Below, in pieces: positions 2,936 to 57,600 of a stretch of DNA of 64,000 nt. The DNA comes from Branchiostoma floridae (Eukaryota > Chordata > Leptocardii > Amphioxiformes > Branchiostomatidae), in the NCBI RefSeq assembly GCF_000003815.2, contig NC_049986.1, forward strand, positions 20,489,720 through 20,553,719, written 5' to 3'. Both the position numbers and the translations under genes were made by a program. Under the pieces are notes generated by a model that ran no database searches, was not told where the DNA came from, and saw only the letters and a program-made list of their open reading frames with translations. Each line of letters opens with the position of its first letter. The first letter of the stretch is position 1.

Positions 2936-5900
2936 ACAGAACTGCCATCTCTCCCTCATAGAACAGCAGACAGTCCTCCTTAGCTGTTCTCTCCAGTTTG
3001 TCAATAAACACATTCCAACGGCTGGGGATCTACAGAAAAAAAGAACAATCAAATATACAAGTCCTGTTTGTACAATGTGTGAAAAATTTAACAGTTAACA
3101 CTTATGGAAAGTATAATTTTTGTTAATTGGAAAATAATTTTCCCAATTGCTGGCATCGCCATGTTTGATTCCACTACTCGTGTACATGTAGAATCTCTCG
3201 CCCGAGGTACCAGCCCACTGCAAGTGATCCGACCTGCGGGAGGGCTGAAATCGAGGGTGATACAGAATACACCATGTTGTATTTTATTTATATCATACCC
3301 ACCTGAGAAAACACATGTTTCGATGAGAAATATGCCAGAAGTTTAGAAATTTGGTGTCCTCAAACAAAAATTGTAACAGAAGCAATTTCAATGTCCGAAT
3401 TACTAGTAGGTATTCAAATTTTGGCAGAGTACGTTAACTTTGAATTATTCGATGGAACTTCTTGGAAGCCTGTGTGATACGGTTTTTATCAACCGGTCTG
3501 GAACACATGTATCCAATGTTATCGCGGCCCAACTATGACATATTAAGCATATTTATAACTCAGTACACTGTCTGTAAGTTACTTACACTGACAGTCACAT
3601 TCCAGGAATGATAGTTTTCTAATCTGCATATACGCAAGGCCACATCAAATGATTAACACCTGAGCTGAAAGATAAATAACGACAGCTGGTGCTGCTCTTC
3701 ACACTCAGTATCACACAGAGAACTTTTCAGACTTGGAGGGTTTTTACCATTTATGGACATTCAGCTCCAAACACAAAAACCAACAACTCTGAATTCTTGT
3801 TCAGAATGTGCACCTATTAGGAAATGTCCCATAACAAAAATCAGCCAAAAGGAATGAAATGACAATCACAGGTAAGGATAAGCCACACCTAGTTTACCCA
3901 GGTAATGACACCTAGGCTACACTGATTTTGCAAAGGTGTGAGGTCTGAGGTCAGGATTATTTCTCCTTGCAATGCAAATGTTGTAAGAAAGATCTGCTTT
4001 TCTAGTTATTATAATCATAATATAATGTTAATTGAAGACCGAGTATAAAGTGCACAAAACAAACACCTTTTTAAGTATTTATTGGTTAGTATACATGATT
4101 GCACAACTGCAGGTCAGGCTCTTGCTTGTGAGCATGTATCATACAGGCAGTTGAACATACAGACATTACCTCCAACCCATCCAACAACTCTAGAACACTG
4201 AAGACACACTTTTAACAAGAAGAGAAGTTTTCTGACTGTAGACTTCAGATCCTCAGGCATCGAAACCCAGGTCAGTCGTTATACTTCTTCTCGGTAAGTC
4301 TTGACCAACATGGCAGAAGTTGTGGGTAATTAAGTCCATTATGAGACAGAAGAAAAAAAAACTATATGGGCAGCTGAAGTCAGACGTTGGTTTCATTTGA
4401 CATGACAAAATGGCGACAAGGAAATGGGCAAAAACAGGCAGAGCACAAGTCTACTGATAAACCTAAGATCACCACTATACAAGGACCACCTCAGTCCTGG
4501 CCAATGTAATAACTATTAATAATTGTAACCTGCAGCTGGCTTTCTGGTGGTCCCTTCGACATTTTTCTTTTTTTTAAGTATTTAAGGTATATCGTCTTTA
4601 TAGACTGTCTAGTACATAGACCAGATTTTAGTGCTTCTATGACTGGCCTTCTTGGACAGTTTTGAGTGTATACAAACATTCTGGTTATGGTCCAAATCCT
4701 CTTCTAGGCAGTCATGTTAAGCATTTTGATGTTACAGGAATGACTCTGGAAGCCATGGAGGTCTTCCTCCCTCAAGCCAATAATATCTCTTAAAATAGTT
4801 GTGATTTCTCCCATTTTCAGTTGAGTAAGATTAGCAACCTTATCATTATGATTTCCCTTTCTCATAAACTGACTCGATGAATACAAACAAATTACATTGC
4901 TTACGACATCTGAAAGTTTCAAACTAAACAAACACTTCTAAGGAAACAGCCTTGTTATGATAAACCTGTCACACTTATATTTCTATCATATAGAGCTGAC
5001 TGACTGACTGACTGAACTAGAAGAAATAAAAAAAAACAATGATAACTGTTACATTCAACTTGACACAAAACCACTACANNNNNNNNNNNNNNNNNNNNNN
5101 NNNNNNNNNNNNNNNNNNNNNNNNNNNNNNNNNNNNNNNNNNNNNNNNNNNNNNNNNNNNNNNNNNNNNNNNNNNNNNCTTCGTTGGCAGCATTGACCAG
5201 AATGTCTAAGAGAGAAGCCAGCTCTGCACCAGTGATGGGTTGATCTAAAGACAAAATACTTAACATGTAAGTAATATCAAAGACACAGGCTGGGGTTGTC
5301 AGACTTGTTGCAAATAAAATATCTTTTTTCTTTAATATTCACAACCACATACTTTACAAGAGCCACTACTGTCTGAGTGTTTCACTAATCGTCTGTCACC
5401 TTCTTCAGGGCAACTATGACTGGTTCATGTTGCACTGCAGGTATACATTTACAATGTAGCAATATGGTCCCAAATTTAAAGCTTTGCCACAGTCATTCAC
5501 AAATCTGATTAACTATTCGACTGAAATATAGGAACCCCGCTTTACCGTTTTTCTCCTTGGGGACCAGTCCTTTCCTGAGCTTGCTGATCAGACTGTCTCT
5601 CTCCTCCCTGTACTCTTCTGTTAGATCTTCTTCTCGTGCCTACAAAAGAAAAAGGACCCATAGTCGTTTTGAGGGATTGATACCTAGTAATCCACTGTGC
5701 CTAGGGCTGTAGGGGGCAGTATTGGAAGAAACAACCTTGAAGTTCCTTCAAGCACATTTCACCTCCCCAACCAAAGTCATGTTCCCGGTTTTATATCTGC
5801 AGACCTGTATATTGAGGAAAGTCATTTAAGGTACCTTTCCCCAAAGACACAATGTTGTAGAAACCTCCACACTCACTACATTATCAAATTATAAGTTTTC

Positions 5901-8900: not shown

Positions 8901-10885
8901 CTTTGAGCTCAATTTTTGCTTCTTTACTAGCCACTTTTCCCACCTGTTGGGCTGCCTTGTGTGGAGATGGTGGCTTCTGTACTCCAGACTGGACATTTTG
9001 TGTACCGTGTTCCAAAATCTCTGCATCCTTTTTGCTTTTCACCTCTAGTTTTCTATCAGCTTGCTGTGTGTGTGCCCTAGTTGGGTTACTGGGAGAGTCC
9101 TGTGGTTGAGGTTGGACATGTTGAGTGCTGTGGGGAGGGCCAGATTTGGACTTAGTTGGAGCAGGTCTGACTACAGGGGGGCCATGGACACCTGATCTGT
9201 CTGGAAAATAGAAAAAGCAGGTTTACTTCAGGTCAAGGTAATTAATCTAAGGGACACAACAAATACATTACTAGTATGCAAAAGAAATTAATTAAATTAA
9301 TTATTGATTTGTGTATAATTATGTACCTTAGGCTATCTATATACCCAAAACAATGACAATCCGTCAACTAGTGCTTGAGTTATTTGCCGCTTAACTCTGA
9401 AACAAAATATGCCCCTGTACGTAGTTCCAAAAAAGCCACTTTGGGGCCCAAACTTTAATGTACAGGGCTCGAAATACACTTTTCAGTCAACTTGCACCAG
9501 TGCAAGTTAAGCCAAAGGTAACTTGCACCAAAAGAAACTTACTTGCACAACCCAAAATAGTGAACTGTTAACCCTTTATTCTTCTTCTGAAAATTTGCAA
9601 ATATATGGGGATACATAAAGACCACATGTTTGGATATTTGTTTTCCAAAGCGTATTTTATTTTGGATTTCAAATTGTACAACAAATGTGAATTTAGGCTT
9701 AATTTAAGACAATTCAATGTCTACAACTTGATAAGATCAATAGATTTCTTCTGGACTCTTCGAGTGACTTCCATCACTATTCTTAACCATCGCTAGAACA
9801 ACTCAATACAAACACATATAACTGGAAAATCCAGTTGATCATATCAAAGTCACTAAATTGTATGCAAAATGTATTTACTCATATGCAAATCAAGGTAAGA
9901 CAACACCATAGGAATTATTAGCATTATAGAGATGGAATTGTCTTCAAATTTTGTTTACCTGGATGTCTAACTCAGTTTAGAAATAACAAATTTAGGCTAT
10001 TTTTTTATTCAGTGTTGTTTTCTTTTACCTTTCAATGGCAGACAATATTCTTGGTGTGTGTAAGCTTTTTCTAAAGTCAGGTATTAGTGGATAAAAGTAA
10101 CTTGCACTGGTGCAAGTTTGGTCCAAACTTACTTGCACCACACCAATTTTACATGCACAAACTTGCATATGCATGTGGTATTTCGAGCCCTGATGTATGT
10201 AACCCTTATTACTCTCTGCCCAAAGAGCTGTCTACCACTCAAAAATCATGGCCACAGCATGTACAAAACACAAGATATCAAAAACAGAAGTTCATTGCAG
10301 TATCTTAGAAAGCTGCTAGGGGGCCATTATCGAACTTGACCCCTACCCACCTATCCAATATAATCAGCATCCATCAAAAGGTTATCGAGTTATGCTGTAC
10401 ATTTATAGATGCACAAAGAAAAAAAATGCTCAAAATTAACTTTTTGGCGAAGGTATGAACATTTCAGTTGCAGATTTGATACATTTTGTCACACACAATG
10501 ACATGCAATATATAGAATTAAAAGTAACGTCGACAGAAAAACCAACGAAAACTTCGGACGCAAAATAAACGAAAACAGTGCCAGTGTAACAAACGTTTTC
10601 ATTGCTTTGATTTTGCGTCCAAAGTTGTAAACTGCCTTTTACACGTGTGACGTCACAACAATAAACTTTGAACAGTTAACAATAGTCCTCAATAATTTCG
10701 GGTTTCCCAGGACCTGTAGCCACCCTACCTTCCTCAACGAACGTCTCAGAAAACTCCTTGTGCAGTGCTGAGACTGTCACCCCGCAGAAGACGAGAAAGA
10801 AGAACAAAACCTTCCTCAGCGCAGAGGACACCATCTCGTCTCGTCTGGGCATGTCTTCATTTGGCAGAGTTTCGGGAAAATCCAC
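2892..10885 (-). CDS. Guanylate-binding-protein-like large GTPase with signal peptide (3' end beyond window)
   Basis: A GBP/atlastin-type large GTPase; family members bind and hydrolyse GTP and act on membranes. Exons, in order: 10729-10885, 8791-9200, 8220-8381, 7825-7885, 7448-7596, 6971-7057, 6604-6718, 6052-6128, 5546-5639, 5179(gap)-5244 and 2892-3029. All have consensus GT-AG sites and matching phases. With Met at 10885, the P-loop GKFHSGKS is at residues 205-212, switch I is RPHTMGIWMW (T235), G3 is LDTEG (261-264) and the GBP-type G4 is VVQD (343-346). Then come the helical-domain signatures LTGAELASLLDILVNAANE-like and IPSRWNVFIDKLER. The second in-frame Met (M18) begins a typical signal peptide or anchor (VLFFFLVFCGVTVSA), and about 135 residues rich in Pro, Lys, Glu and Gln separate it from the G domain, unlike vertebrate GBPs. 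Part of exon 10 is lost in the N gap and later exons lie off the left edge. Confidence 0.88.
3032..5078. other. Intron of the GTPase gene, no gene seen
   Basis: This stretch lies between GTPase exons 10 and 11. It is AT-rich, non-coding sequence with no convincing ORF, RNA gene or terminal inverted repeat. It contains a short (ctga)n/(gact)n run near 4995-5015. Confidence 0.5.
5079..5178. other. Assembly gap (100 N)
   Basis: Exactly one hundred Ns, the usual placeholder for a gap of unknown size. It falls inside exon 10 of the GTPase gene, so the coding link between exons 10 and 11 is not visible. Confidence 0.98.
6349..6560. mobile_element. MITE fragment (family of 13921-14166)
   Basis: The segment ggatatgattttggaaatgg, followed by a block ending in cagtgacactga, is shared with the fold-back element at 13921-14166. 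A further block, cctcaatgaaaagatgcat...gccaatttgagct, is shared with about 13150-13195. It lies in a GTPase intron. It is a partial copy, so its boundaries are approximate. Confidence 0.5.
7623..7782. mobile_element. pogo/Tigger-like MITE
   Basis: A 160-bp fold-back with TIRs TA-CAGTAGAAGCCGCTTAA on the left and the complement of CAGTATAAACCAGTTAA on the right, both running into ATTGCAC, with TA at each end. The TA duplication and CAGT termini fit the pogo/Tigger group. There is no coding capacity. It is inserted in a GTPase intron. Confidence 0.7.
8128..8256 (-). repeat. 43-bp tandem triplication spanning the splice donor of GTPase exon 3
   Basis: The string ccttacc recurs at 8128, 8171 and 8214 with nearly identical sequence between, giving three ~43-bp units. 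On the minus strand each unit holds the exon end (CCCATATGCAT.. to GGGGAAAG) plus the donor GTAAGG. Only the 5'-most donor (GT at 8218-8219) keeps the GTPase frame; the other two would add 43 or 86 nt and shift it. Confidence 0.85.
9352..10480. mobile_element. Degenerate repeat element split by a nested insertion
   Basis: The flanks (9352-9462 and 10193-10480) share blocks with the element at 42901-43960. Examples are 'ctaccactcaaaaatcatgg' against 'ctaatacttaaaaatcttga', and the 'cccctacccac...catcaa.aggtt.tc.agttatgctg' block. The 730-bp insertion 9463-10192 interrupts it. It lies in GTPase intron 1. Confidence 0.5.
9463..10192. mobile_element. Non-autonomous hAT-like element with CAGGGCTCGAAATA termini
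   Basis: The terminal inverted repeats are CAGGGCTCGAAATA on the left and TATTTCGAGCCCTG on the right. Subterminal copies of ACTTGCACCAGTGCAAGTT-like palindromes occur at both ends. The CAGGG terminus suggests hAT, but the flanking duplication is only clear for about 5 bp (ATGTA), so the superfamily is tentative. There is no transposase ORF. Confidence 0.65.
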
Positions 10886-11312: not shown

Positions 11313-14300
11313 ATGTCTGCAGAGGGGGGAGGGGCGGAGGCCAAGTTGGCTGGTAACGTTGAAGTTTTCTTCTGAAATTTGAATGACCGCTTTTCTCTAA
11401 ATTTGATATTGTTGTATAGTTAAGTGCAGCGTAAGTCTTTATTCAACAGAAGGCTAATAAATGTAAGTTTAAGGTACTTATTCTCCAAGCAGATGTTGGG
11501 AGGACCCCGGGTAGGTAGAAAAATCTTCCATCCCAACATCTGCTTGGATATTACGAAGTTCCAGTAATATTTTGTTTCCAGATGTTAGGATGGTAGTCCA
11601 AGCAGAAGTGGTGACGAACTATGTGAACCATACTTTAGATATTAGTGATGATCTTTTTACAGCAATCACTGTTGTTTTGTTATTACATCCTTGGAACTGG
11701 AAATTAACGTTGTAGACAAATAACATTGCTACTAACTGATTTGTTGAATATGCTGGCCCCATTTTATGATCAGCATGTCAACATTGGTACGGCCAATATT
11801 TCTGTAATATGATATAGATAGCATAAACGTTTCTTTTGTCTATACTCCCTGTAGCGATCCCTGATGTTGAGATTGACCCTGACGGCAAGTTCAAGTACAT
11901 CCTGATCCGTTGCCATGGTCCCGGTGATGTCAGTAAGGACATTGTCAGGGGGTTCGCATGGGCAGAGTACCATGGTAGGTATATGCAGTTATGTTAAAAC
12001 TGCATCATTTGAACTGTCATCATGCATTGGTTGCTCAGTACTGCTGGTTTTGATATACTACTTGAAAAACAATTGTAGATGATACATGTATCTACTAGAG
12101 TGTAAATTTTTGCCCGGATTCCAAGGCATTATTTGATCTTTGTTTTCTTTTCTTTGGTATCAGATTATTAAGAGCATTTTGCATGTCTATATGTTAAACA
12201 TTTTATGTAGACTGAACAGCTCATAACCCCAAAATAAATACTTATGTAAGTATCCTGCCTAGGGAACCGTAAATAAACACTTAACGTAACGGTTAACAAA
12301 CAAAGCATATTGTAACAGGCATTATGCCATGGGCGATAAAAAAATAGCCTGGTGTCCAGCTGTATTATAGCTCCCAAGTCTCTTCTGTCCTCCCCACAAA
12401 TATTTGCGGAGAGGACAGAAGAGACTCAGGAGCTATGATACGGCTGGATACCAGGCTAGATACAAAAACCAACCACTGCTGCAATTTTTCTTGTCAACTG
12501 CTGAAGCCGCAGTGTTTAAAACGACTGTAATGTCCCGTTCTCCAGCTGATATCTATGACAGAGTTGCGCCGGGGATTGAGGCTCTAGGGTTTGACTGTGA
12601 ATGTATAGGCGGCGGCAGAATACAGCATAGCAGCAGTCAGAGGACCATCCTAGTGTATGGGTACTCCATGGTATGTTTTATGTCTACTTTGGGGGTGTTT
12701 GTCCCTGTGTCTGTTTGAGATGATAGTTCACCGACCATGAGATGATTTCAAAGTAATTACTGAATTGCAAATGCTTTGCATGTGATTCAAAAAACAGAAG
12801 GAACATTTTTTTTTACAATTCTCCTGAACATTTTGCCAGAAAAACTATAGGGAAAGAGTACAAGTAAGAGTGGGATTTTTTTCGGAAGAGAAAAGTACAG
12901 CAGAAGTTTCATCCTGATCTTGCCTGGGTACCATCTGATATAGTACTGGGTCTGCCTTGATTTTTTCAGGGCAGGTCTGTTAGTAAATGAATGCTACCCA
13001 GGCTGATCCATTTTTAAAAGTTACAAATTCTATAGGCTGGGGGAAAGATAGACAGAAAAAATTCAAATAGCACATCTTTCCTTTTTTACAGTTTCATTAT
13101 ACAGTTACTTTTACACAGTACTACACACTTTGTCTGACCCTTGCTTCTTCCCTCAAGACCTCAATAAAAAAGCAGCTTGCAGGCCAATTTGAGCTTTCAT
13201 GAATAAACAAAGGTTCAAACAAACTGTCAGACTAGGATTGCATTATGTGCTTCTACCAGTCATGTCACACAGACACAGGGACATCCCACCACCCCGTAGT
13301 CTCAGACCTGTAGTTTTCCACAGTGTTTGTAACCGCTTCACTTTCAGACCACATCTACGGGAAGGTGAAGCCTGTGCTAGATGAGCTGCAGATCCAGTCC
13401 CAAGTGCTAGGGGGCGGAAAGATCACCCATGAGAGCGCAGAGAAGAAAATCCATGTCTATGGAAAATCCACTGTATGTCACATGGGGAATAAGTGTTGGA
13501 CAGGGGAAACTTTGGATGGGGAAAACAAAGAATTTATTTGTTTTCCCACTTTCAATGCTTGCCTTGTTTGTACTAATCTTGCTAGATTTGAAAGTGTCTG
13601 TTGAAAGATGCAACTGAGTGTCTCCCAATTTGTGGATTGTACCCTGTACTGCTGCCTATGTCCTGTTTGTTAGTTATTTTGTGTGTTTTCAACAATTTTC
13701 TTGAATAATTTGTGCTGTTTACTAAATCAATAGGCTGTCACAAGTGTTAATTCTTTTAGTTTTGGAACACATTGTTACATAAAACTGGTCTGGCAGGAAT
13801 TGAATTGGTTAAAGCAAGTGTTTTGTAGCTTTGACAATGTTTATGTATAATATAGAGCTGCTTGCACGATTGCAATAATATTATGTAACTTATACCAGAT
13901 TTGCGCCAAATTGCAATCAAGCAAGCAGCTTGATATGATTTTGGGCATGGTCAGACATTTTAGGTAACATCCGGTATCTTTTGACAGTGACACTGAAGAG
14001 ATCTCGTTTCGGAGCAGGTTTTGTATCCTAACTATGAATTGATATGCAAAGGAGAGGAAGACAATCTCTCTTGAACAAGAACTCTTCAGGGCTTGAAGAT
14101 AGATAACAAAAGATAATGGATGTTATCTGAAACATCTGACCATTTCCATGGATATCCAGTTGCTTGAGTAACTGGTATTTGGCGTATCTTATTACACAAG
14201 TTTACTTATTAAACAAGTTTACTATGTCATTTTATTTTTTTCTTCTACAGGGTTTTGGCCAGGCTGACCACTCCATCACTGTGGAGAAACTCAAGAAGAA

Positions 14301-14346
14301 GTTTCCTGACTACTCCAGCATCACCTTCAACAATGAGGGGTACTGA
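11313..14346 (+). CDS. PHPT1: 14 kDa phosphohistidine phosphatase with two alternative third exons
   Basis: PHPT1 (Janus/Ocnus family) removes phosphate from phosphohistidine in proteins and is cytosolic. Exons: 1, 11313-11352; 2, 11855-11974; 3a, 12546-12670 or 3b, 13348-13472; 4, 14251-14346 (TGA). Either choice gives 126 residues, against 125 in human PHPT1. Exon 2 encodes [18 protein letters not shown]...[10 protein letters not shown], whose final His matches the catalytic His53 of the human enzyme, so both forms keep it. Exon 3a encodes DIYDRV...CECIGGGRI...VYGYSM, close to the mammalian sequence. Exon 3b encodes HIYGKV...[11 protein letters not shown]...VYGKST. Exon 4 ends ...[14 protein letters not shown]. 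Exons 3a and 3b are both 125 nt, start in phase 1 and end in phase 0, so using both would break the frame. The family assignment is secure; the splicing behaviour is inferred. Confidence 0.95.
11481..11551. mobile_element. Short fold-back (CTCCAAGCAGATGTTGGGA ends)
   Basis: An inverted repeat of about 20 bp per arm (CCAAGCAGATGTTGGGA and TCCCAACATCTGCTTGG) around a GGGTAGG-containing loop, in PHPT1 intron 1. The termini resemble the CCAAGCAGA ends of the MITE family at 31364, 42483 and 45193. Confidence 0.6.
12345..12458. mobile_element. Fold-back MITE, TAGCCTGG family
   Basis: A 114-bp near-palindrome: TAGCCTGGTGTCCAGCTGTA on the left, complement of GGCTGGATACCAGGCTA on the right, with a GAGGACAGAAGAGACT arm pair inside. 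It lies in PHPT1 intron 2. Related TAGCCTGG-ended elements occur at 12919, 22156 and 39274. Confidence 0.65.
12546..12670 (+). other. PHPT1: PHPT1 alternative exon 3a
   Basis: 125-nt exon with acceptor cag before 12546 and donor GTATGT after 12670. It encodes the canonical-looking version, with the CECIGGG cysteines and the VYGYSM substrate-loop residues. Confidence 0.9.
12919..13005. mobile_element. Small TAGCCTGG-family MITE
   Basis: Short inverted termini (TGCCTGGGTACC on the left, complement in CTACCCAGGC on the right) with a GGTCTGCCTTGA / GGGCAGGTCTG core. It is closely similar in layout to 22156-22244 and lies between PHPT1 exons 3a and 3b. Confidence 0.55.
13348..13472 (+). other. 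PHPT1: PHPT1 alternative exon 3b
   Basis: 125-nt exon with acceptor ttcag before 13348 and donor GTATGT after 13472. It aligns residue for residue with exon 3a (same length and phases, shared GGG[RK]I.H core and VYG) but lacks the cysteines and replaces YSM with KST. Confidence 0.9.
13921..14166. mobile_element. Fold-back MITE in PHPT1 intron 3
   Basis: About 48-bp imperfect inverted arms: AAGCAGCTTGATATGATTTT... on the left, complement of ...ATGGATATCCAGTTGCTT on the right, each running to GGATGTTA/TAACATCC. A separate short hairpin (gctgcttgcacgattgcaat and its complement) lies just upstream at about 13857-13931. Confidence 0.65.
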
Positions 14347-14369
14347 AGACATGAACAGTGTGACAACTT

Positions 14370-14537
14370 CTTAAAGACTGGCTCTGCAGAGTTTCCTTTC
14401 CATACATTCAAGGCTTTAAGAGTATGATTATGCCCAGGATACAAGGCTGATTTGCCAACAATGTTCCAACCTCTTGAAGAATGGCTCTGCAGAGTTTCCA
14501 TTTCTTACATTTAAGGCTTCAAGTCTTGTACTGCCTT
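14370..14537. repeat. ~100-bp tandem repeat in the PHPT1 3' flank, second copy split by the palindrome
   Basis: The block 'actggctctgcagagtttcc..acattcaaggctttaag' (about 14379-14420) recurs as 'aatggctctgcagagtttcc..acatttaaggcttcaag' (about 14478-14524). The next part of copy 1, 'atgcccaggatacaaggctga', reappears only beyond the palindrome at about 17905-17925. The palindrome therefore landed inside copy 2. Confidence 0.7.
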
Positions 14538-17500
14538 CTTAAGAGCGAATGTCTGTAAGGGTCAAACAATGGTGGCACCGGTCAAAAAATAGATTTGGCT
14601 CCTTTTTTGCACAGTGATAGTACTTGGTACACAACCCCTCAAAATAGCTTTCTTTCTTCTCAGAACCCCTCGTTGCCATGGCAACAGGCCAAAGAAGTTT
14701 GGGGGCCGTTTTGCCGGATTTGGGCATGTCAAAAACATGAAAATTGGCCAACTTAAGGGCACTATCACTGAACAATGCTTTAACTAAACAACAAAGGCAG
14801 AATATGCTGATCAGAGCAATGCCTAAACTTGTATAAAATAGCAGTAAAGTTAATCTCCTGTAAATTCTAAGGCCCTGGGCAGCCTGAATACAATACACTG
14901 TTTTCAGGTTGTAAAGAATCTGAAATTTTGCCCAACTTCAAAGCACTGAAAGTCCATAAGTATAAAATATTTTCGCTTGCAATTTACTACAAATAATAAC
15001 CTACTATAGGGCTATTAGATGAATGCTAGCAAAGTTTGGGTTCTTGTTTTGTTGCTATGCAATCGTCCGTCGAAGTGGGTCAAATTTCATGATTTTGATA
15101 ATATGTCATTTTGTGCTCTCTTTAAACAATCATAAGTCCCATACCAAAGTTGCTCTGCAATTAAAATTCACATGGATTATAAACCAATGTATTGTCTATC
15201 AAATGCATGTTTGTAAAGTTCGGGTTCTTGTTTCGTTGCTACGTAATTGTCCTTTAAAGTGGGTCATTTTTTATGATTTTGATAAAATACATTATTTGGC
15301 ATCATCTTCGAACAATCATAACTCACAAGCCAAAATTGTTCTGTAACTAGAATTTACCTGAAATGTAAACCAAGATATTGTTTCTCAAGGTCATGCTTGT
15401 AAAGTTTGGGTTCTTGTTTTGTTGCTAAGCAATTGTCCATTAAATTGGGTCAATTTTCATGATTTTGATGATATATCATTTTGCGCTCTCTTTGAACTGT
15501 CATAAGTTGCAAAGTAAATTTGTTCTGAAATTGAAATTAACAAGGAATACAAACGAATATATTGTCTATCAAATGCTTGTTTGGACAGTTCGAGTTCGGG
15601 TATTCTAACAGTGAATGTACATGTCCCTGAAAGTAGGTCGTATTCCACTGACTTTTCCACAAATCATGTTCTTGACAACAGTGATACACAGTCTTTGTTT
15701 TTATAGAACCGATGTAGCAATGTGCTATCACCATGGAAAAAAAAACATTTGTAGGAATCATATTCTACAGAAAGTCATATTTATGTTTAATGTCAGATTA
15801 ATCCACTCTGAACTTTCAAACATTCTGCTAGTTTTAAAGCTAAGCATGACGTATGACTACAGTCTTGAACATGTTTGCATCCCCACAATATGGCGACTTA
15901 TTTCTACATTGGAACAAATATCTTAAATCTCTGTGCATCTTTCTTTCACAGTAATGTGAAAAACATGTGCATTTTCAACTTCTGCTAACACACTCATTTT
16001 CAGCAAGGACATGAACTTCGGTATTCTTGAATTTTCGCCACATATATGGACTTCGAAAGGCAATCAATTATTGGTGATCGCAAATCAGATTTAGGAATGT
16101 TAGTTCGTACAAGTTCAATTTCCTTGCCACATCGCAAGCTTATATGTGTCTCCCAAAAAGGAAGACGTAGATAAACGTCATTCGTTGCTTCATTTTGATC
16201 TTTACTGTTGATAGACTCGAACAAAGTTAGGTCAAGATGCTGACCTTCATCATCCTCTGCCGTATTTTGACGTTAGCCTGTCAAGCTAATTTCCACACAG
16301 ACAGACTAGCAGACAAACATCAATCGCCGCCAGGAGTTGGCATTTCAGGCAAACTTCAAGAGCAACCTACTAGTACTAGGTTCGTTCTTGCCCTTGAGTA
16401 TGGTCCATTGAATAGCAGAAACTGAAAAACGCATGTTTTCACATAAATGCTACCGTGAAAAGAAAGATGCACAGAGATTTATGATATTCGTTCCAAATAT
16501 GTATATACATTGTATAAGCTAAGTCTTCAAGAGTCATATTGTGGGGATGCAAACATGTTCAAGACTGTTGTCATACGTCATGCTTAGCTTTAAAACTAGC
16601 AGAATGTTTGAAAGTTCAGAGTGGATTAATCTGACATTAAACATAAATATGACTTTCTGTAGAATATGATTCCTACAAATGTTTTTTTTTCCATGGTGAT
16701 AGCACATTGCTACATCGGTTCTATAAAAACAAAGACTGTGTATCACTGTTGTCAAGAACATGATTTGTGGAAAAGTCAGTGGAATACGACCTACTTTCAG
16801 GGACATGTACATTCACTGTTAGAATACCCGAACTCGAACTGTCCAAACAAGCATTTGATAGACAATGTATTCGTTTGTATTCCTTGTTAATTTCAATTTC
16901 AGAACAAATTTACTTTGCAACTTATGACAGTTCAAAGAGAGCGCAAAATGATATATCATCAAAATCATGAAAATTGACCCAATTTAATGGACAATTGCTT
17001 AGCAACAAAACAAGAACCCAAACTTTACAAGCATGACCGTGAGAAACAATATCTTGGTTTACATTTCAGGTAAATTCTAGTTACAGAACAATTTTGGCTT
17101 GTGAGTTATGATTGTTCGAAGATGATGCAAAATAATGTATTTTATCAAAATCATAAAAAATGACCCACTTTAAAGGACAATTACGTAGCAACGAAACAAG
17201 AACCCGAACTTTACAAACATGCATTTGATAGACAATACATTGGTTTATAATCCATGTGAATTTTAATTGCAGAGCAACTTTGGTATGGGACTTATGATTG
17301 TTTAAAGAGAGCACAAAATGACATATTATCAAAATCATGAAATTTGACCCACTTCGACGGACGATTGCATAGCAACAAAACAAGAACCCAAACTTTGCTA
17401 GCATTCATCTAATAGCCCTATAGTAGGTTATTATTTGTAGTAAATTGCAAGCGAAAATATTTTATACTTATGGACTTTCAGTGCTTTGAAGTTGGGCAAA

Positions 17501-17889
17501 ATTTCAGATTCTTTACAACCTGAAAACAGTGTATTGTATTCAGGCTGCCCAGGGCCTTAGAATTTACAGGAGATTAACTTTACTGCTATTTCATACAAGT
17601 TTAGGCATTGCTCTGATCAGCATATTCTGCCTTTGTTGTTTAGTTAAAGCATTGTTCAGTGATAGTGCCCTTAAGTTGGCCAATTTTCATGTTTTTGACA
17701 TGCCCAAATCCGGCAAAACGGCTCCCAAACTTCTTTGGCCTGTTGCCATGGCAACGAGGGGTTCTGAGAAGAAAGAAAGCTATATTGAGGGGTTGTGTAG
17801 CAAGTACTATCACTGTGCAAAAAAGGAGCCAAATCTATTTTTTGACCAGTGCCACCATTGTTTGACCCTTACAGACATTCGCTCTTAAG
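14538..17889. mobile_element. 3.35-kb palindromic Foldback-like element
   Basis: The left arm (14538 to about 15952) and right arm (about 16450-17889) are inverted copies. Paired positions sum to 32427 throughout, so there is no net indel, and only scattered single-base differences are seen. The ends are CTTAAGAGCGAATGTCTG and its complement. Inside each arm an aaagtt[tc]gggttcttg block repeats at 15031, 15215, 15401 and (diverged) 15585, a ~185-bp period. The ~500-bp centre has no recognisable protein. Long inverted repeats made of tandem repeats are the layout of Foldback/Galileo-type elements; the superfamily is inferred. Confidence 0.8.
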
Positions 17890-39500: not shown

Positions 39501-39882
39501 GTCTGTAGACAGTGGGGCACTTTGGTGGCACATGACACAAATTCTCACAAGTCCTATACTCTGTAGTGAGTTTGCCCATGAGGTGTACAGTGTACTGTTA
39601 AGATTGACCTTGCCTACAGACAGTCCTAGCTGAGACTGAGGTCTAAAGATACAGAATTGTTTGACATTCTTTAACCTCTGGCACTTCTTCTTTTTCTGTC
39701 CCTCTATAATAAAAACCCCTACTCACACTGTGTGAGGTATCACTGAGGTGGGAGGGGAGCATCAGGGATTACTACAGGCCTACTAGTAGGGTTGTATTAT
39801 GTTTTTTTTTTTTTTTTTTCTAAAGTTGATGTCATCTGTTCCATTTTCTAATTGTTTCTGTTTGTTTCGATATGTTATAGAC

Positions 39883-42483
39883 ATGGAGGAGCAAAGCTCT
39901 GTCGTCGTGCATCTACTGGACAAAAATGCCCCTGTCATGATTTTGGCCGTGTCTGGTAAAGGTCCAGGGAACGAGAACGACTGCAGAGAGGACCAGATAA
40001 CAGACGTAACATGGCAGCAGGACAAGGATAGGCAGAGTCTATGTGATTCACCACAGCTTAGTAGGAAACATACAGCTAGAAAAGTCTACTGTTGCACTTG
40101 GTGCAACTATTCCACGACAAAGAAAAAATTGATAAAGGTTCATGTTCAAAAACATGACAAGGACAAGCCCTACATCAGGACAGACAGCAGAGAGGACCAG
40201 ACAACAGTCACGGGAAGGCAGCTGGACCAAGAAAGGGAGAGTCCGTGTGAGGAAACCCACAGTGAAGGGTCAGCCCAGCATTATCATGTTTGTGAGGAAT
40301 GTGGGTACAGGACAAGCTGGCTCGCAATCCTTTCTGTACACAGAAGAAAACATACAGGAGAAAACTCTTGTAGTCGTGAAATGTCTGCAGAACTTGACAA
40401 TAACGAGACCAGTAGCAGAACAGAAACAGAATGGCAGCAGGACGAGAACGAGAGGTCCAGGGATGAAACATGCTCGGTGAACTCTGTCCATCCTGGAGAC
40501 AAGTCTCTCTTACATGCTAGGCATCGAGACAAGAATGATTCGCCACGGCCTAGTAAGAAACGTACAGCTAGAAAATTGTACTGTTGCAATCATTGCAGCT
40601 ACTCCACGAGAAATAAGAAATTGATTAAGGTACATGTAAAAGTACATAACAAAGATAAGCCATACATCAGGCCTAGGACAGACAGCAGAGAGGACCAGAC
40701 GACAGACACAGGAAGGCAGAAGGACAATGAAAAGAAAAGTCCATGTGAAGAAACAAACAGTTTAGGCTCTACCCAGTATGGTATAAACAGGACAGAGAGC
40801 AGAGAAGACCAAACAGCAGACACAGGAAGGCAGCAGCAGGACAAGGAAAGGGAGAGTCCATGTGAGGAAACCTACATTGTAGGCCCTACCCAGTTTGAGA
40901 AAAGGACAGACAGCAGAGAAGACCACACAACAGACACAGGAAAGCAGCAGGACATAGACTCTAACAGTAAAGGTGCTACCAAATGTGAACATGTGTGTAG
41001 GGAGTGTGGATACAGAACAAGTCGACTGGCAAACCTTACAGAACACATGAAAAAGCATGCAGGGGAAAACCCTTACAGTCGTGAAATGTCAGAAAAAATT
41101 GACGATAACCAGGCCAGCAGTGGGGAGGACCAGATGTCAGACGTAGAATGGCAGCCCGAAGACGATGGCAGCTCAAGCGATGAACCATGCTTCGTCAACT
41201 CTGTCCAACCTGCAGACAAATCTTTCCTACATGCGTATGAAAGGCATCTAGACGAGAATGATTCACCACGAAACAATACAGCCAAAAATGTTCACTGTTG
41301 CACTCGGTGCAGCTATTCAACGAGGAATAAAAACTATTTGAAGCTACACATGCAAAAACATGCCAAAGACAAGCCTTACAAATGTAACAAGTGTGGATTC
41401 AAAACTGCCCATAGAAGAAGACTGTCTATGCATATGAGGGACAAACATTCAGATAAAAGGCCTCACAAATGTGACCAGTGTGACTATTCCGCATCGAGGA
41501 AAAACACGCTTGACCAACACATGCTCACGCACACCGGTGAGAAACCCCACATGGGTGAAGTATGCGGGTACGTAACGGCACATAAGTCGCGGCTGGTAGT
41601 GCATAAGAGAGGGCACACCGGTGAGAAACCCTACAAATGTGACCAGTGTGACTTTGCCGCGGTGACAAAAACTCGTTTAGATGACCACATGGTTAGACAC
41701 ACTGGCAAGAAATACCTCAAGTGTAAACAGTGTTCATACAAGACTGCCCGTAGGCCTCAGTTGTTGGTGCATATGAGGACACACACAGGCGAAAAACCCT
41801 TCAAGTGTGACTGGTGCGACTATTCTGCTGCGCTGAAAATGACTCTTGATAGGCACGTCGTGGCTAAACATACCAGCGTTAAACCCTTCCAGTGTGACAT
41901 GTGCGACTATGCTGCAGTACAGCGATTCACATTAGTGCAACACAAGGCGAGGGAACACACTCTCACACAGACTGGTGATCAGAGACCCTACAAATGTGAT
42001 CAGTGTGACTTTTGTACTACGGAAAAGAGGTACTTAGACCGACACGTTCTGAAGCACAGTAGTGAAAAACCCTTCATGTGTGATGAGTGCGGATACATGA
42101 CGCGTTACAAATACCAACTCACAGTTCACAAGAGAAAACACTCAGGAGAGAGACGCTACAAGTGTCACCTGTGCGACTATGCTGGTGCTCGGAAATGTAA
42201 TTTAGATCAACACATGGTTAAACACTCTGGTGAGAAACCCTTTGTGTGTGGGGAGTGCGGGTACAGAACAGCTGATAAGTATTACCTCAAGAAACATGAG
42301 GCTAATAAACACAATGTACATAACAAGATTGACTTACACAAGACAAAGAAAAGTGACTCGCAGTTACACAAGGTTGAGACAAACAAGAGCGACTTGCAAA
42401 AGACCAAAAAGGGCAACACACGGGGCTTCCCTACAGCACAGGAAACAATAGAAGCTTGCCAGGTTATTGTACAACCTGATTAA
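39883..42483 (+). CDS. C2H2 zinc-finger protein, 16 fingers
   Basis: Probable nuclear DNA-binding protein. The coding exon starts at ATG 39883 (MEEQSSVVVHLL...), three bases after a splice acceptor (ttatag, AG at 39879-39880), so the upstream poly(T)-rich frame is intronic and a 5' non-coding exon must lie further left. The single coding exon encodes 866 residues. Four isolated fingers in the N-terminal half (~68, 134, 231, 368) alternate between YCCxxCxYST and HVCxECGYRT types. Acidic linkers between them repeat a SREDQTTDTGRQ...SPCEET motif about six times. From ~471 to ~835 there are twelve fingers, mostly tandem with TGEKP-type linkers. Finger 8 (HMGEVCGY) has lost its first cysteine, so it should not bind zinc normally. 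The YKCDQCDY/FxT finger class resembles REST/ZNF-array proteins of invertebrate chordates. Target unknown. Confidence 0.93.
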   Translation: MEEQSSVVVHLLDKNAPVMILAVSGKGPGNENDCREDQITDVTWQQDKDRQSLCDSPQLSRKHTARKVYCCTWCNYSTTKKKLIKVHVQKHDKDKPYIRTDSREDQTTVTGRQLDQERESPCEETHSEGSAQHYHVCEECGYRTSWLAILSVHRRKHTGENSCSREMSAELDNNETSSRTETEWQQDENERSRDETCSVNSVHPGDKSLLHARHRDKNDSPRPSKKRTARKLYCCNHCSYSTRNKKLIKVHVKVHNKDKPYIRPRTDSREDQTTDTGRQKDNEKKSPCEETNSLGSTQYGINRTESREDQTADTGRQQQDKERESPCEETYIVGPTQFEKRTDSREDHTTDTGKQQDIDSNSKGATKCEHVCRECGYRTSRLANLTEHMKKHAGENPYSREMSEKIDDNQASSGEDQMSDVEWQPEDDGSSSDEPCFVNSVQPADKSFLHAYERHLDENDSPRNNTAKNVHCCTRCSYSTRNKNYLKLHMQKHAKDKPYKCNKCGFKTAHRRRLSMHMRDKHSDKRPHKCDQCDYSASRKNTLDQHMLTHTGEKPHMGEVCGYVTAHKSRLVVHKRGHTGEKPYKCDQCDFAAVTKTRLDDHMVRHTGKKYLKCKQCSYKTARRPQLLVHMRTHTGEKPFKCDWCDYSAALKMTLDRHVVAKHTSVKPFQCDMCDYAAVQRFTLVQHKAREHTLTQTGDQRPYKCDQCDFCTTEKRYLDRHVLKHSSEKPFMCDECGYMTRYKYQLTVHKRKHSGERRYKCHLCDYAGARKCNLDQHMVKHSGEKPFVCGECGYRTADKYYLKKHEANKHNVHNKIDLHKTKKSDSQLHKVETNKSDLQKTKKGNTRGFPTAQETIEACQVIVQPD

Positions 42484-54623: not shown

Positions 54624-57600
54624 GTATTTCACAGATGAAGTGGAACTGTTTCTTGCACTTGTCCAGAACCCACTTCTTGCCAAGGCGTCTGATAGCAACA
54701 CAGTCCCTGCGCTGGTGACGTCTCGGTGGGTTATCACGGCTGCGCCAGTTGCTGTAGTCGCTTGCGACGTCGAAAGCCGAACCGTCGCTCCACTTGAACT
54801 TATTCTCGTTGCCACGTCCACGGTCGTCCAATCCAATCCAATATTTCCTGTGTATAGAACATACACATACATACATTGTCATTCTCTTATCGAGTTGTAG
54901 CGTTAACAATGTTCTGCTTCCAGTGCGATCTATCGTTCATAGGTCCCTACCAGATAGTCCAGTCTCTGAGTCAATAAATTTGTTTATCGCAAGGTATCGA
55001 CGGCCTCTTCATCCTTTTTTGCTTCTGGGGACCAAAAAAGCAGTTTACCGGATGGTTCGCCATGTCGTGTTACATGTCCAGCAAGACTTAACCGGCGTCG
55101 CCTGACTTTAGTAGAGATAGGTGGAAGAGCCCCACACAGTGTTCTGGTTGCTGCATGTTCTAACCAAGATTTTAGATAGAAATAGATGATAAAAAAAGAA
55201 GGATAAGAATCCGTTACTCCTTCAAGAGCTAAAGTAATCAACCATATTCTCCTCAGAAGCTATTGTAGCCGCCGTTACCGCCAAGTACTGAAGGGGAAAC
55301 ATCATTAGATATATTTTAGAAAATGCATGCAGCGTTATTTGCAAACGTTACGTGTGACAGGTCGTTCCGTGTACATGTCATAGAACCAGCTGCTGCCGCG
55401 CTGCGTCACTGCGAAGCTGGTGATAAAAACCTGTTATAAAACCAATGGCCAATGCTACAAGACACTTTAAATAGTTTACATATAAGTATAGTATAAGTAT
55501 TGTATTGAGATATATCACAATTGTTGTTTTTGTTCTTGATATTATTAACTACATATTTTGATTTATCCATGAGAAGAATTCGTATCTGAAGTTAATTTGA
55601 AACTTGAAGTTTCTAAAGTACTGAACTGTGAAGAATCAACAATGAGGAGTTAAAAAGCTCTCATGCTTTTCCTGCAAGAAACTTAGCATACGAGGGGCGT
55701 TCAATAAGTAATAACTCTGACCCACTTCCAGTTGTCTCATCTAGATGAAATCTGCATGTATAATGATTCATATCTCTATAGTTTATGTTGCAAAAAAGAG
55801 CTCTGAACTAACTGTGGTTTCTGATTTACTGGTGTTTGAACTGAGTTAGGTGTGAAATGGACCAGGTGTGAAATGGGGCCAGTTGAGTGTCGAGCAGTGA
55901 TCCGGTTTTTGAATTTGAAAGGACGCACACCAAAGGAGACTTTTGATGAAATGAAAGAAACTTATGGTGATGATGCCCCATCACATGGCCTTGTAAAACG
56001 CTGGCATCCTGAATTCAAACATGGCCGGAAGTCTGTGGAAACAGCTTCCAGACCTGGTCGTTCTCTTCTGCCATTGATGAGGCATCTGTTGGAGGGCCAA
56101 CCTGGGGTGTCCTACAAAAACGGTGTCCAGAACTGCATCAAACAATGGGAGAAATGCATAACTCTGGGTGGTTCCTATGAAGATAACGACTAATAACTGT
56201 GCCAAGTTTCATTAATCTCCTGCTATGGGAAATGAGTCAGAGTTATTACTTATTGAACGCCCCTCGTACAGATGTCTCTTATAGATACAGTAAACAAACC
56301 TTCCTGGCAGGTTGTTGAAAAAGACATCTCCAAGCCAATGATGCTTGACAGAGTCCTTGATCATAAGAAGCCTGGCGTTGCGACTGTTGCAGAATGTCTC
56401 GGCACCGGCGAAGTTAGCTCTGGTCATGGAGTACCAATGGCAACGGCCGTCGTAGACACCAAATGTGTCCGTCGGGAAGCGAGGGTTTTGTTGATGACAG
56501 CCTAGAAACATCATTAAACGGCTGTTTTAATATTCATAAAAGGGGGAAATGTGTTTCGGGAGGATCTAAGGTCTAAGATCTAAGGTAAAGGGGTGCAATG
56601 AGACTACAACTTAGCCCCCTAACTATTATGCTTATAGAGTCTGGCTTTTGGGGTCTTATACAGTGCATTGTTTGGAAAGCATATATACTAGTTCCATGGC
56701 TCTGGTCTCTTATGGTCGCGACAAGTGGAACCGAGTGGAATAGATCAGTGATACCAGCAGAGAAACGCACATTATAAGCACCCAAATGCCCTATACACTC
56801 CTGAAGCCATACTGACTGACAGACAGGGATTTGGTTCGCAGGGAATGATGGCTGTAACTGTGTTTAGAGTGAAGAAGTGAAAACGCGTGGACGACACAGT
56901 AGCGTACAGAAGAAGAAAAATGTTTCCTTGTTTTCCATGAGAAGCTAAAATTGATATTGACAAAAATTACATTCTTTGCATAAATGATGTCACAACACAA
57001 GATTCTTACTGAGGACTGTACATCCGGTTCCGCTGGATTCTCCATCTCCTCCGTACCCGGCCGGACATGTACAGGTGGCCCCTGTTCCTGGAGCCGCGAT
57101 GTCTTCACAGGTTGCCATGGCAACACACGGGTTGGAAGAGCAGCCATCGATGTCTGGAAAGAAAGGTGTTACGGATGTAGGGACCAGGCCCCGCCACGTA
57201 TGGGGGTCCTGGCCCGTCTGGTTTAGGTTAGCTTAGCATGACAACAAAGACGAATGACAATAAAGAAGCGAAGATGATGAAATAGTTTTTATCCAATAAA
57301 CCATTTCATCATCATCAAAGACGACAGACCCTCTAGTCAGTCAGTTCTAGGATGTAAGCCGTCTTGTCCAGACCTCCTCTCTGGGTCTCTCTGGCTGCTC
57401 TTTAGCTACGCTACACAGACATCTCAAACACGCGTCATTCGGTATCATGCAAACTCACTAAAAGTCCAACATTTTTATGTACATCATTATTGTCGTATTT
57501 CCACAGCAATATGTAAATTTTAGTAATACTAATATATATTCACCTGAACACCCAGTCCCGCTCGATTCTCCATCCCCCTCGTACCCGGCTCCACAGGTAC

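What the first reader, a model, noticed from the sequence alone, without database searches (positions are those of the whole stretch)
12546..13472. PHPT1 carries frame-enforced, equal-length alternative third exons
Exons 3a and 3b are both 125 nt, start in phase 1, end in phase 0, have good splice sites and encode alignable halves of the PHPT1 fold. Including both, or neither, breaks the frame (125 is not a multiple of 3), so the gene structure itself enforces mutual exclusion. Both keep the catalytic His from exon 2. 3b swaps the YSM loop for KST and loses the CEC cysteines, so it could change substrate choice or redox sensitivity. I know of no described lancelet PHPT1 isoform pair.
Basis: partly seen in the sequence, partly recalled or inferred. 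Interest (0 to 1): 0.85.

Follow-up and report, generated by a model that had tools for sequence, protein, structure and literature searches.

The report
Two swappable third exons in PHPT1
A small animal enzyme gene (phosphohistidine phosphatase, PHPT1) carries two related but well diverged versions of its third coding exon, only one of which can be used per message if a whole protein is to result, so the gene probably makes two enzymes that differ around the active site.

Summary
PHPT1 (Pfam Ocnus) has exons 1, 2, 3a, 3b and 4. Exons 3a (12546-12670) and 3b (13348-13472) are both 125 nt, in the same phase and homologous (16 of 42 residues identical). Either one gives an open 126-residue PHPT1; both or neither give an early stop. 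3b does not look like a decaying relic: it is open, exon-like in composition, and nearer to human PHPT1 than neutral drift usually leaves it. The 3b donor is weaker than 3a's. New: a strong stem (core 12700-12724 with 13259-13283) inside the 677-nt intron between 3a and 3b, a candidate switch element. The cassette lies between catalytic His53 and residue 96; 3b has Asp54, Lys78, Lys93, Thr95 and keeps Ser94. No transcript or second-species evidence could be reached; lancelet origin was not tested. Best reading: mutually exclusive exons from an old tandem exon duplication, a new member of a known kind.

The parts
11313..11352 (+). PHPT1 exon 1 (coding part), start codon to donor GTAACG
   Evidence: joins in frame to exon 2
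11855..11974 (+). PHPT1 exon 2; carries the residues aligned to human Lys21, Arg45 and catalytic His53; ends one base into codon 54
12546..12670 (+). Alternative exon 3a, 125 nt; residues 54-95 (ADIYD...CECIGGGRI...YGYSM)
   Evidence: 25 of 42 residues identical to human PHPT1
12700..12724 (+). 5' arm (core) of the intronic stem, starting 30 nt after the last base of exon 3a
   Evidence: 22 of 24 positions (12700-12723) complementary to 13260-13283; extended duplex 12682-12725 / 13258-13302
13259..13283 (+). 3' arm (core) of the intronic stem, 64 nt upstream of exon 3b; about 534 nt lie between the arms
13348..13472 (+). Alternative exon 3b, 125 nt; residues 54-95 (DHIYG...SQVLGGGKI...YGKST)
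   Evidence: 19 of 42 residues identical to human, 16 of 42 to 3a
14251..14346 (+). PHPT1 exon 4, coding part to the stop codon; residues 96-126

Best explanation
An old tandem duplication of exon 3 of an animal PHPT1 gene has become a pair of mutually exclusive exons. Exons 1, 2 and 4 are common; one of 3a or 3b is spliced in, giving two full-length 126-residue Janus/Ocnus-family proteins. The cassette runs from directly after catalytic His53 to residue 95, so the swap keeps the catalytic base, Lys21 and the exon-4 residues but replaces residues 54-95, including the Tyr93-Ser94-Met95 substrate stretch. Isoform b keeps Ser94 but has Asp54, Lys78, Lys93, Thr95 and no cysteine in the cassette: probably still a phosphatase, with changed substrate preference. 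The choice is probably made at splicing, with the strong stem in the 3a-3b intron as a candidate element and the weaker 3b donor making 3a the default; the frame only makes wrong products useless. Shown: gene anatomy, homology, both open forms, the frame consequences, the stem as a sequence fact, signs of constraint on 3b. Inferred: that both isoforms are made, the role of the stem, the change of substrate.
For: Anatomy and frame. Both isoforms match PF05005, each exon-3 peptide on its own as well, and PHPT1 chains in the PDB. 3b is the only non-self candidate among 70 with a score above zero, and its BLOSUM score to human (93) exceeds that to 3a (81). Codon-position differences 14/17/28 of 59; NG86 dN 0.56, dS 2.59; LWL85 0.56, 1.29. 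Neutral decay from 3a leaves an open exon with at least 19 of 42 human residues in 0.01% of 20,000 runs at 60 substitutions; from a human-like ancestor proxy in 0.11% of 10,000 at 60 and in none at 80. 3b GC is 0.516 and GC3 0.667; 0 of 1651 overlapping 125-nt intron windows reach that GC. A54D, R78K, Y93K and M95T made singly in 3a cost 0.6, 1.2, 1.9 and 0.6 bits in the Ocnus profile, less than S94A (2.6). Stem: 22 of 24 against at most 19 in 300 shuffles; duplex 12682-12725/13258-13302 at -55.3 kcal/mol against -30.5 +/- 2.6 in 60 shuffles and reached by 1 of 155 other tiles of the window. Precedent: mutually exclusive IIIb/IIIc exons in amphioxus Fgfr (PMC5703972, passages).
Against: No transcript evidence and no second species. 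3b donor weaker; 3b scores lower than 3a in Pfam. dS is saturated and methods disagree (YN00 failed, ML gave dS 25). The third-position excess alone is modest (P = 0.019). In the ancestor-proxy test a young neutral 3b is not excluded (50.7% of runs at 20 substitutions, 20% at 30); 3b differs from the proxy by a mean of 36 nt, about what 45 neutral substitutions give, where the figure lies between 4.4% and 0.8%, though the proxy is itself built partly from 3b. CEC to SQV costs 4.4 bits. The stem hides no splice site and no competing partner for its arms stands out; it may be a transposon trace. Inverted repeats of the same quality with any loop occur in 7 of 186 tiles, with a loop of 200 nt or more in 1 of 186.
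Confidence: 0.78

Rival explanations
1. 3b is an unused relic of an exon duplication that happens still to be open.
For: Weaker 3b donor; lower Pfam score than 3a (44.0 vs 54.3 bits); a young neutral copy is not excluded (20% of runs at 30 substitutions, 0.8-4.4% at the matched divergence of about 45).
Against: 3b differs from 3a at 26 of 42 residues and 59 of 125 nt yet is open, keeps both splice sites and its exact length, has exon-like GC and 19 of 42 human residues; neutral runs from 3a give an open exon that human-like in 0.2% at 45 substitutions and none at 75 or more. The 300-nt flanks of the two exons show no significant remaining similarity (P 0.58 and 0.08), which suggests an old event.
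Confidence: 0.09
2. 3b is used mainly as a poison exon: including both 3a and 3b gives an early stop and turns the gene down by NMD.
For: Double inclusion stops after 6 residues of 3b, about 100 nt before the last junction. The stem brings the 3a donor near the 3b acceptor, which could favour joining them.
Against: A poison exon needs no conserved protein sequence, but 3b keeps family residues in the right frame.
Confidence: 0.08
3. Assembly error or collapsed paralogue: 3b belongs to another PHPT1 copy.
For: The window has a 100-base run of N at 5079-5178; the whole-genome search for other Ocnus genes did not complete.
Against: No N between exons 1 and 4; no second copy of exons 1, 2 or 4 in the window by tblastn; 3b sits in the right orientation, phase and place.
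Confidence: 0.03
4. About the stem only: 12700-12724 / 13259-13283 is the terminal inverted repeat of a decayed transposon and has no role in splicing. (Compatible with the best explanation for the exons.)
For: Snapbacks are common nearby: 12345-12458 in intron 2, 12922-12934/12991-13003 inside this same intron (12 of 13), and a large inverted repeat beginning about 1.3 kb downstream.
Against: No other copy of the 24-nt arm at up to 4 mismatches in the window; the loop is not itself an inverted repeat (score 21; shuffles mean 18.4, max 26); no target-site duplication seen by eye at the two ends (sequence).
Confidence: 0.4

Closest known systems
Human PHPT1 (14 kDa phosphohistidine phosphatase; PDB 2AI6, 2OZW, 2OZX, 2NMM, 2HW4), Pfam PF05005 Janus/Ocnus
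   Same: Family profile, catalytic His53, Lys21, Arg45, Ser94, GGG and VYG motifs.
   Different: An alternative human PHPT1 transcript is mentioned in PMC5249009 (passages), but no homologous pair of third exons appeared in the listings I saw. Isoform b has Asp54, Lys78, Lys93, Thr95 and no cassette cysteines.
FGFR IIIb/IIIc mutually exclusive exons, including amphioxus Fgfr (PMC5703972, passages)
   Same: Homologous exons that swap part of a binding site, used in a mutually exclusive way. Recalled, not found in the papers seen: in mammalian FGFR2 a stem inside the IIIb-IIIc intron (IAS2-ISAR) helps the choice, the same layout as here.
   Different: Receptor ectodomain, Esrp-regulated; no regulator is known here.
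Docking-site/selector mutually exclusive exons (Dscam, 14-3-3 zeta, Mhc, MRP1; introduction of PMC6071210, read)
   Same: Long-range intronic RNA pairing next to tandem exons.
   Different: One strong stem; no competing partner of its arms stands out.
Predicted mutually exclusive exons by the WebScipio criteria (PMC3228551, passages)
   Same: Meets the stated criteria: length, splice pattern, frame, homology.
   Different: Nothing in kind; the gene is not reported in the searches made.

Membership tests
PHPT1 / Janus-Ocnus family | Profile match over the whole domain | tested here: met
   PF05005 positions 1-107 of 108; isoform a 138.4 and b 128.0 bits, cut-off 23
PHPT1 / Janus-Ocnus family | Catalytic His53 and Lys21 (human numbering) | tested here: met
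   Both in exon 2, shared by both isoforms
PHPT1 / Janus-Ocnus family | Phosphate/substrate residues Ala54, Arg78, Tyr93, Ser94, Met95 (roles from PMC4817053, passages) | tested here: inconclusive
   Isoform a keeps all five. Isoform b keeps Ser94 only; its other four residues, put singly into 3a, cost 0.6 to 1.9 bits in the profile
PHPT1 / Janus-Ocnus family | Phosphohistidine phosphatase activity | not testable with these tools
   Needs protein and assay
Mutually exclusive exons by tandem duplication | Adjacent, similar length, same frame, compatible splice sites, homologous (criteria of PMC3228551, passages) | tested here: met
[quoted passage not shown]
   No RNA data held
Exclusion because the intron between is too short, or by U2/U12 mismatch | Very short intron, or a U12-type site | tested here: not met
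   Intron 677 nt; donors GTAGGT/GTATGT/GTATGT and acceptors CAG of 3a and 3b are U2-type by eye
Docking/selector competing RNA structures | One site with two or more competing partners beside the exons | tested here: inconclusive
   Best partners of the two arms in introns 2 and 4: -28.6, -28.3, -20.9, -25.8 kcal/mol against -46.9 for the stem; strongest cross-intron duplex elsewhere -33.3 (12425-12462 with 12916-12951), with no control of its own
Clean-up of wrong splice products by NMD | Double inclusion and double skipping both give a stop well before the last junction (50-55 nt rule recalled) | tested here: inconclusive
   Met for double inclusion; not for skipping, whose stop is in exon 4, unless a 3' UTR intron exists (not tested)

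The most novel reading that the evidence does not exclude
A phosphohistidine phosphatase with a swappable active-site wall: one gene makes a canonical enzyme with Met95 and a second form (Asp54, Lys78, Lys93, Thr95, cysteine-free cassette) with a different labile-phosphate substrate, and an RNA stem bridging the intron between the two exons sets the choice. 3a and 3b (16 of 42 identical) are further apart than either is from human (25 and 19 of 42), so the exon pair may be older than chordates and lost in vertebrates.
Probability: 0.2. Interest if true: 0.7.

Novelty: new member of a known kind. Interest (0 to 1): 0.45.

Why it matters
PHPT1 is one of few known protein phosphohistidine phosphatases in animals (general knowledge), and what sets its substrate choice is open. 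A natural pair of isoforms that share the catalytic base and differ only in residues 54-95 would be a ready-made swap experiment: same enzyme, two versions of part of the active site. It would also add a small enzyme to the genes diversified by frame-locked exon pairs.

Tried and rejected
Relatives that would date the exon pair: none confirmed among 214 pattern matches in viral contigs or 128 in prokaryote contigs. The search of the window's own assembly for Ocnus genes was sent ten times and never answered, so other paralogues, haplotypes and further copies of the stem arms in the genome stay untested. Literature (open-licence papers only): 'phosphohistidine phosphatase' + amphioxus 0 papers; 'mutually exclusive exons' + amphioxus 8, all listed, of which I looked at passages of one; any 3 of PHPT1, alternative splicing, isoform, exon 28,130, of which 15 were listed; 'phosphohistidine phosphatase' + 'mutually exclusive' 6, all listed, judged from titles and abstract openings; any 2 of PHPT1, Branchiostoma, lancelet, exon duplication, tandem exon 675, of which 12 were listed. 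None of the listings showed this pair. The FGFR2 stem could not be found in text (listings; passages) and is recalled.

Rejected: exclusion by a short intron or by U12 sites. Not found: significant similarity of the introns flanking the two exons; a competing partner for the stem arms. Weak lead only: TGCATG (Rbfox-like, recalled) at 12180 and 12777, on both sides of 3a; with 22 on the + strand of the 64 kb about 0.4 would be expected in these two introns. Rfam: 0 matches at gathering cut-off; tRNA: 0.

Full report
What is there. The gene lies on the + strand at 11313-14346. Exons 3a and 3b are both 125 nt and both take the single base left over from exon 2. Either one gives an open frame of 126 residues. 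Using both stops after six residues of 3b; using neither stops five residues after His53, in exon 4.

It is PHPT1. Both spliced proteins match Pfam Ocnus far above the cut-off (138.4 and 128.0 bits against 23), and so does each exon-3 peptide alone (54.3 and 44.0). The PDB matches at E up to 0.001 are three distinct sequences, all named 14 kDa phosphohistidine phosphatase; that they are human is recalled, and stated for 2OZX in PMC4817053.

Is it chance? No. In the whole window there are 70 open AG-125nt-GT candidates on the two strands (36 + 34). Against 3a, 3a itself scores 223, 3b scores 81 and the next best -18. tblastn of both isoforms finds no convincing second copy of the other exons in the window.

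Is 3b alive? The evidence is indirect but points one way. 3a and 3b share 16 of 42 residues; 3a shares 25 of 42 with human and 3b 19 of 42. The nucleotide differences fall 14, 17 and 28 on codon positions 1, 2 and 3 (P = 0.019 for the third-position excess). NG86 gives dN 0.56 and dS 2.59, LWL85 0.56 and 1.29; YN00 failed and the ML estimate (dS 25) is not usable, so dS is saturated and these are rough. At five sites 3b has the human residue where 3a does not, and at eleven the reverse. When 3a is mutated without selection, an open exon with at least 19 human residues is left in 3.9% of 20,000 runs at 30 substitutions, 0.2% at 45, 0.01% at 60 and none at 75 or more. Starting from a more human-like ancestor proxy (mean 30 of 42 human residues), the figure is 50.7% of 10,000 at 20, 20% at 30, 4.4% at 40, 0.8% at 50, 0.1% at 60 and none at 80. 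3b differs from that proxy by a mean of 36 nt, about what 45 neutral substitutions give, so at matched divergence this hardest version of the test leaves a few per cent at most; the proxy is built partly from 3b itself, which favours the relic. Indels, which neutral decay would also bring, were not simulated, and 3b has kept exactly 125 nt. No significant likeness is left in the flanking introns (P 0.58 upstream, 0.08 downstream), which suggests an old duplication. 3b is exon-like in composition: GC 0.516 and GC3 0.667, where none of 1651 overlapping 125-nt windows in the three introns reaches that GC (maximum 0.488).

What the swap changes. By the alignment, the boundary between exons 2 and 3 falls one base after the codon of catalytic His53 and the boundary between exons 3 and 4 directly after residue 95. 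In human PHPT1 the site is said to lie between the alpha1-beta4 and beta5-alpha2 loops; Tyr93 and Met95 are among the residues important for substrate binding; the backbone NH of His53, Ala54 and Ala96 and the OH of Ser94 hold phosphate; Lys21 and Arg78 help (PMC4817053, passages). The cassette therefore carries a large share of the pocket (inference). 3a keeps Ala54, Arg78, Tyr93, Ser94 and Met95. 3b has Asp54, Lys78, Lys93, Ser94 and Thr95. Charged residues go from 3 K+R against 5 D+E in 3a to 6 against 5 in 3b, and the cassette's two cysteines and one methionine are gone. Read through the Ocnus profile, single changes A54D, R78K, Y93K and M95T in 3a cost 0.6, 1.2, 1.9 and 0.6 bits, S94A 2.6, and the triple CEC to SQV 4.4; L89H and the QRTIL-to-EKKIH change towards 3b and human raise the score by 1.3 and 2.8; the whole 3b piece scores 63.1 against 74.5 for 3a. 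So the single changes in the pocket are of a kind that the family tolerates, and a working variant looks more likely than a broken one.

How one exon is chosen. The frame does not choose; it makes the two mistakes unproductive. NMD of transcripts with both exons is one described contribution to mutual exclusion (PMC6071210, introduction). Here it would fit double inclusion but not skipping, because the skip stop lies in the last coding exon. A short intron or mixed U2/U12 sites, also named there, do not apply: the intron is 677 nt with U2-type sites. What stands out is a stem inside that intron: the core 12700-12724, starting 30 nt after the last base of 3a, pairs with 13259-13283, ending 64 nt before 3b. 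At 22 of 24 core positions the arms are complementary, against at most 19 in 300 shuffles. In the folded 2276-nt region between exons 2 and 4 its pairs have probability 0.93 to 1.0, apart from the two mismatched positions. The extended duplex 12682-12725 / 13258-13302 has -55.3 kcal/mol against -30.5 +/- 2.6 in 60 shuffles of the intron; among 155 other 677-nt tiles of the window (mean -32.6, sd 5.7) one is stronger, at 55601, and the same measure gives -29.5 and -35.5 for introns 2 and 4. By the inverted-repeat measure 1 of 186 tiles has a match as good with a loop of 200 nt or more, lying in the large inverted repeat next door, and 7 of 186 with any loop; those tiles did not happen to hold this stem whole. 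The stem would bring the 3a donor near the 3b acceptor while covering no splice site. I found no strong competing partner for its arms, so the Dscam-type docking model has no support here; the layout recalls the stem in the FGFR2 IIIb-IIIc intron (from memory). A transposon trace remains a serious rival for the stem. The 3b donor has T at -1 and scores well below 3a's, so 3a is the likely default.

Verdict. Mutually exclusive third exons made by an old tandem duplication, confidence 0.78 that both isoforms are real products. Amphioxus already has a described event of this kind in Fgfr (PMC5703972, passages). I found no report for PHPT1 in the searches, which cover open-licence papers only and of which 14 and 51 were seen only in part. 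It is a new member of a known kind; the part worth testing is the natural swap of part of the active site in a phosphohistidine phosphatase.

Noticed in passing
14538-15987 and 16413-17889: A large inverted repeat, about 1.45 kb per arm and 96.6% identical, starting about 190 bp after the PHPT1 stop codon, with ~186-bp tandem units in the left arm. It looks like a recent foldback transposon or palindrome.
   Followed up: partly
12345-12458: A 57-bp-armed snapback with no loop in intron 2 (88% complementary); probably a small transposon.
   Followed up: partly
14354-14420 and 14457-14523: 67-nt tandem duplication (84% identical) just after the PHPT1 stop codon, in the likely 3' UTR.
   Followed up: no
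12180 and 12777: TGCATG (Rbfox-like, recalled) on both sides of exon 3a; about 0.4 expected in the two introns from 22 in the window.
   Followed up: partly
10676-10885, minus strand: Open frame with a Met followed by a hydrophobic stretch (VLFFFLVFCGVTVSA), perhaps the first exon of a head-to-head neighbour of PHPT1.
   Followed up: no
39790-42480: 897-residue open frame with many C2H2 zinc fingers.
   Followed up: no
tile starting at 55601: The one 677-nt tile of 155 with a stronger long-range RNA duplex (-67.0 kcal/mol) than the PHPT1 intron.
   Followed up: no
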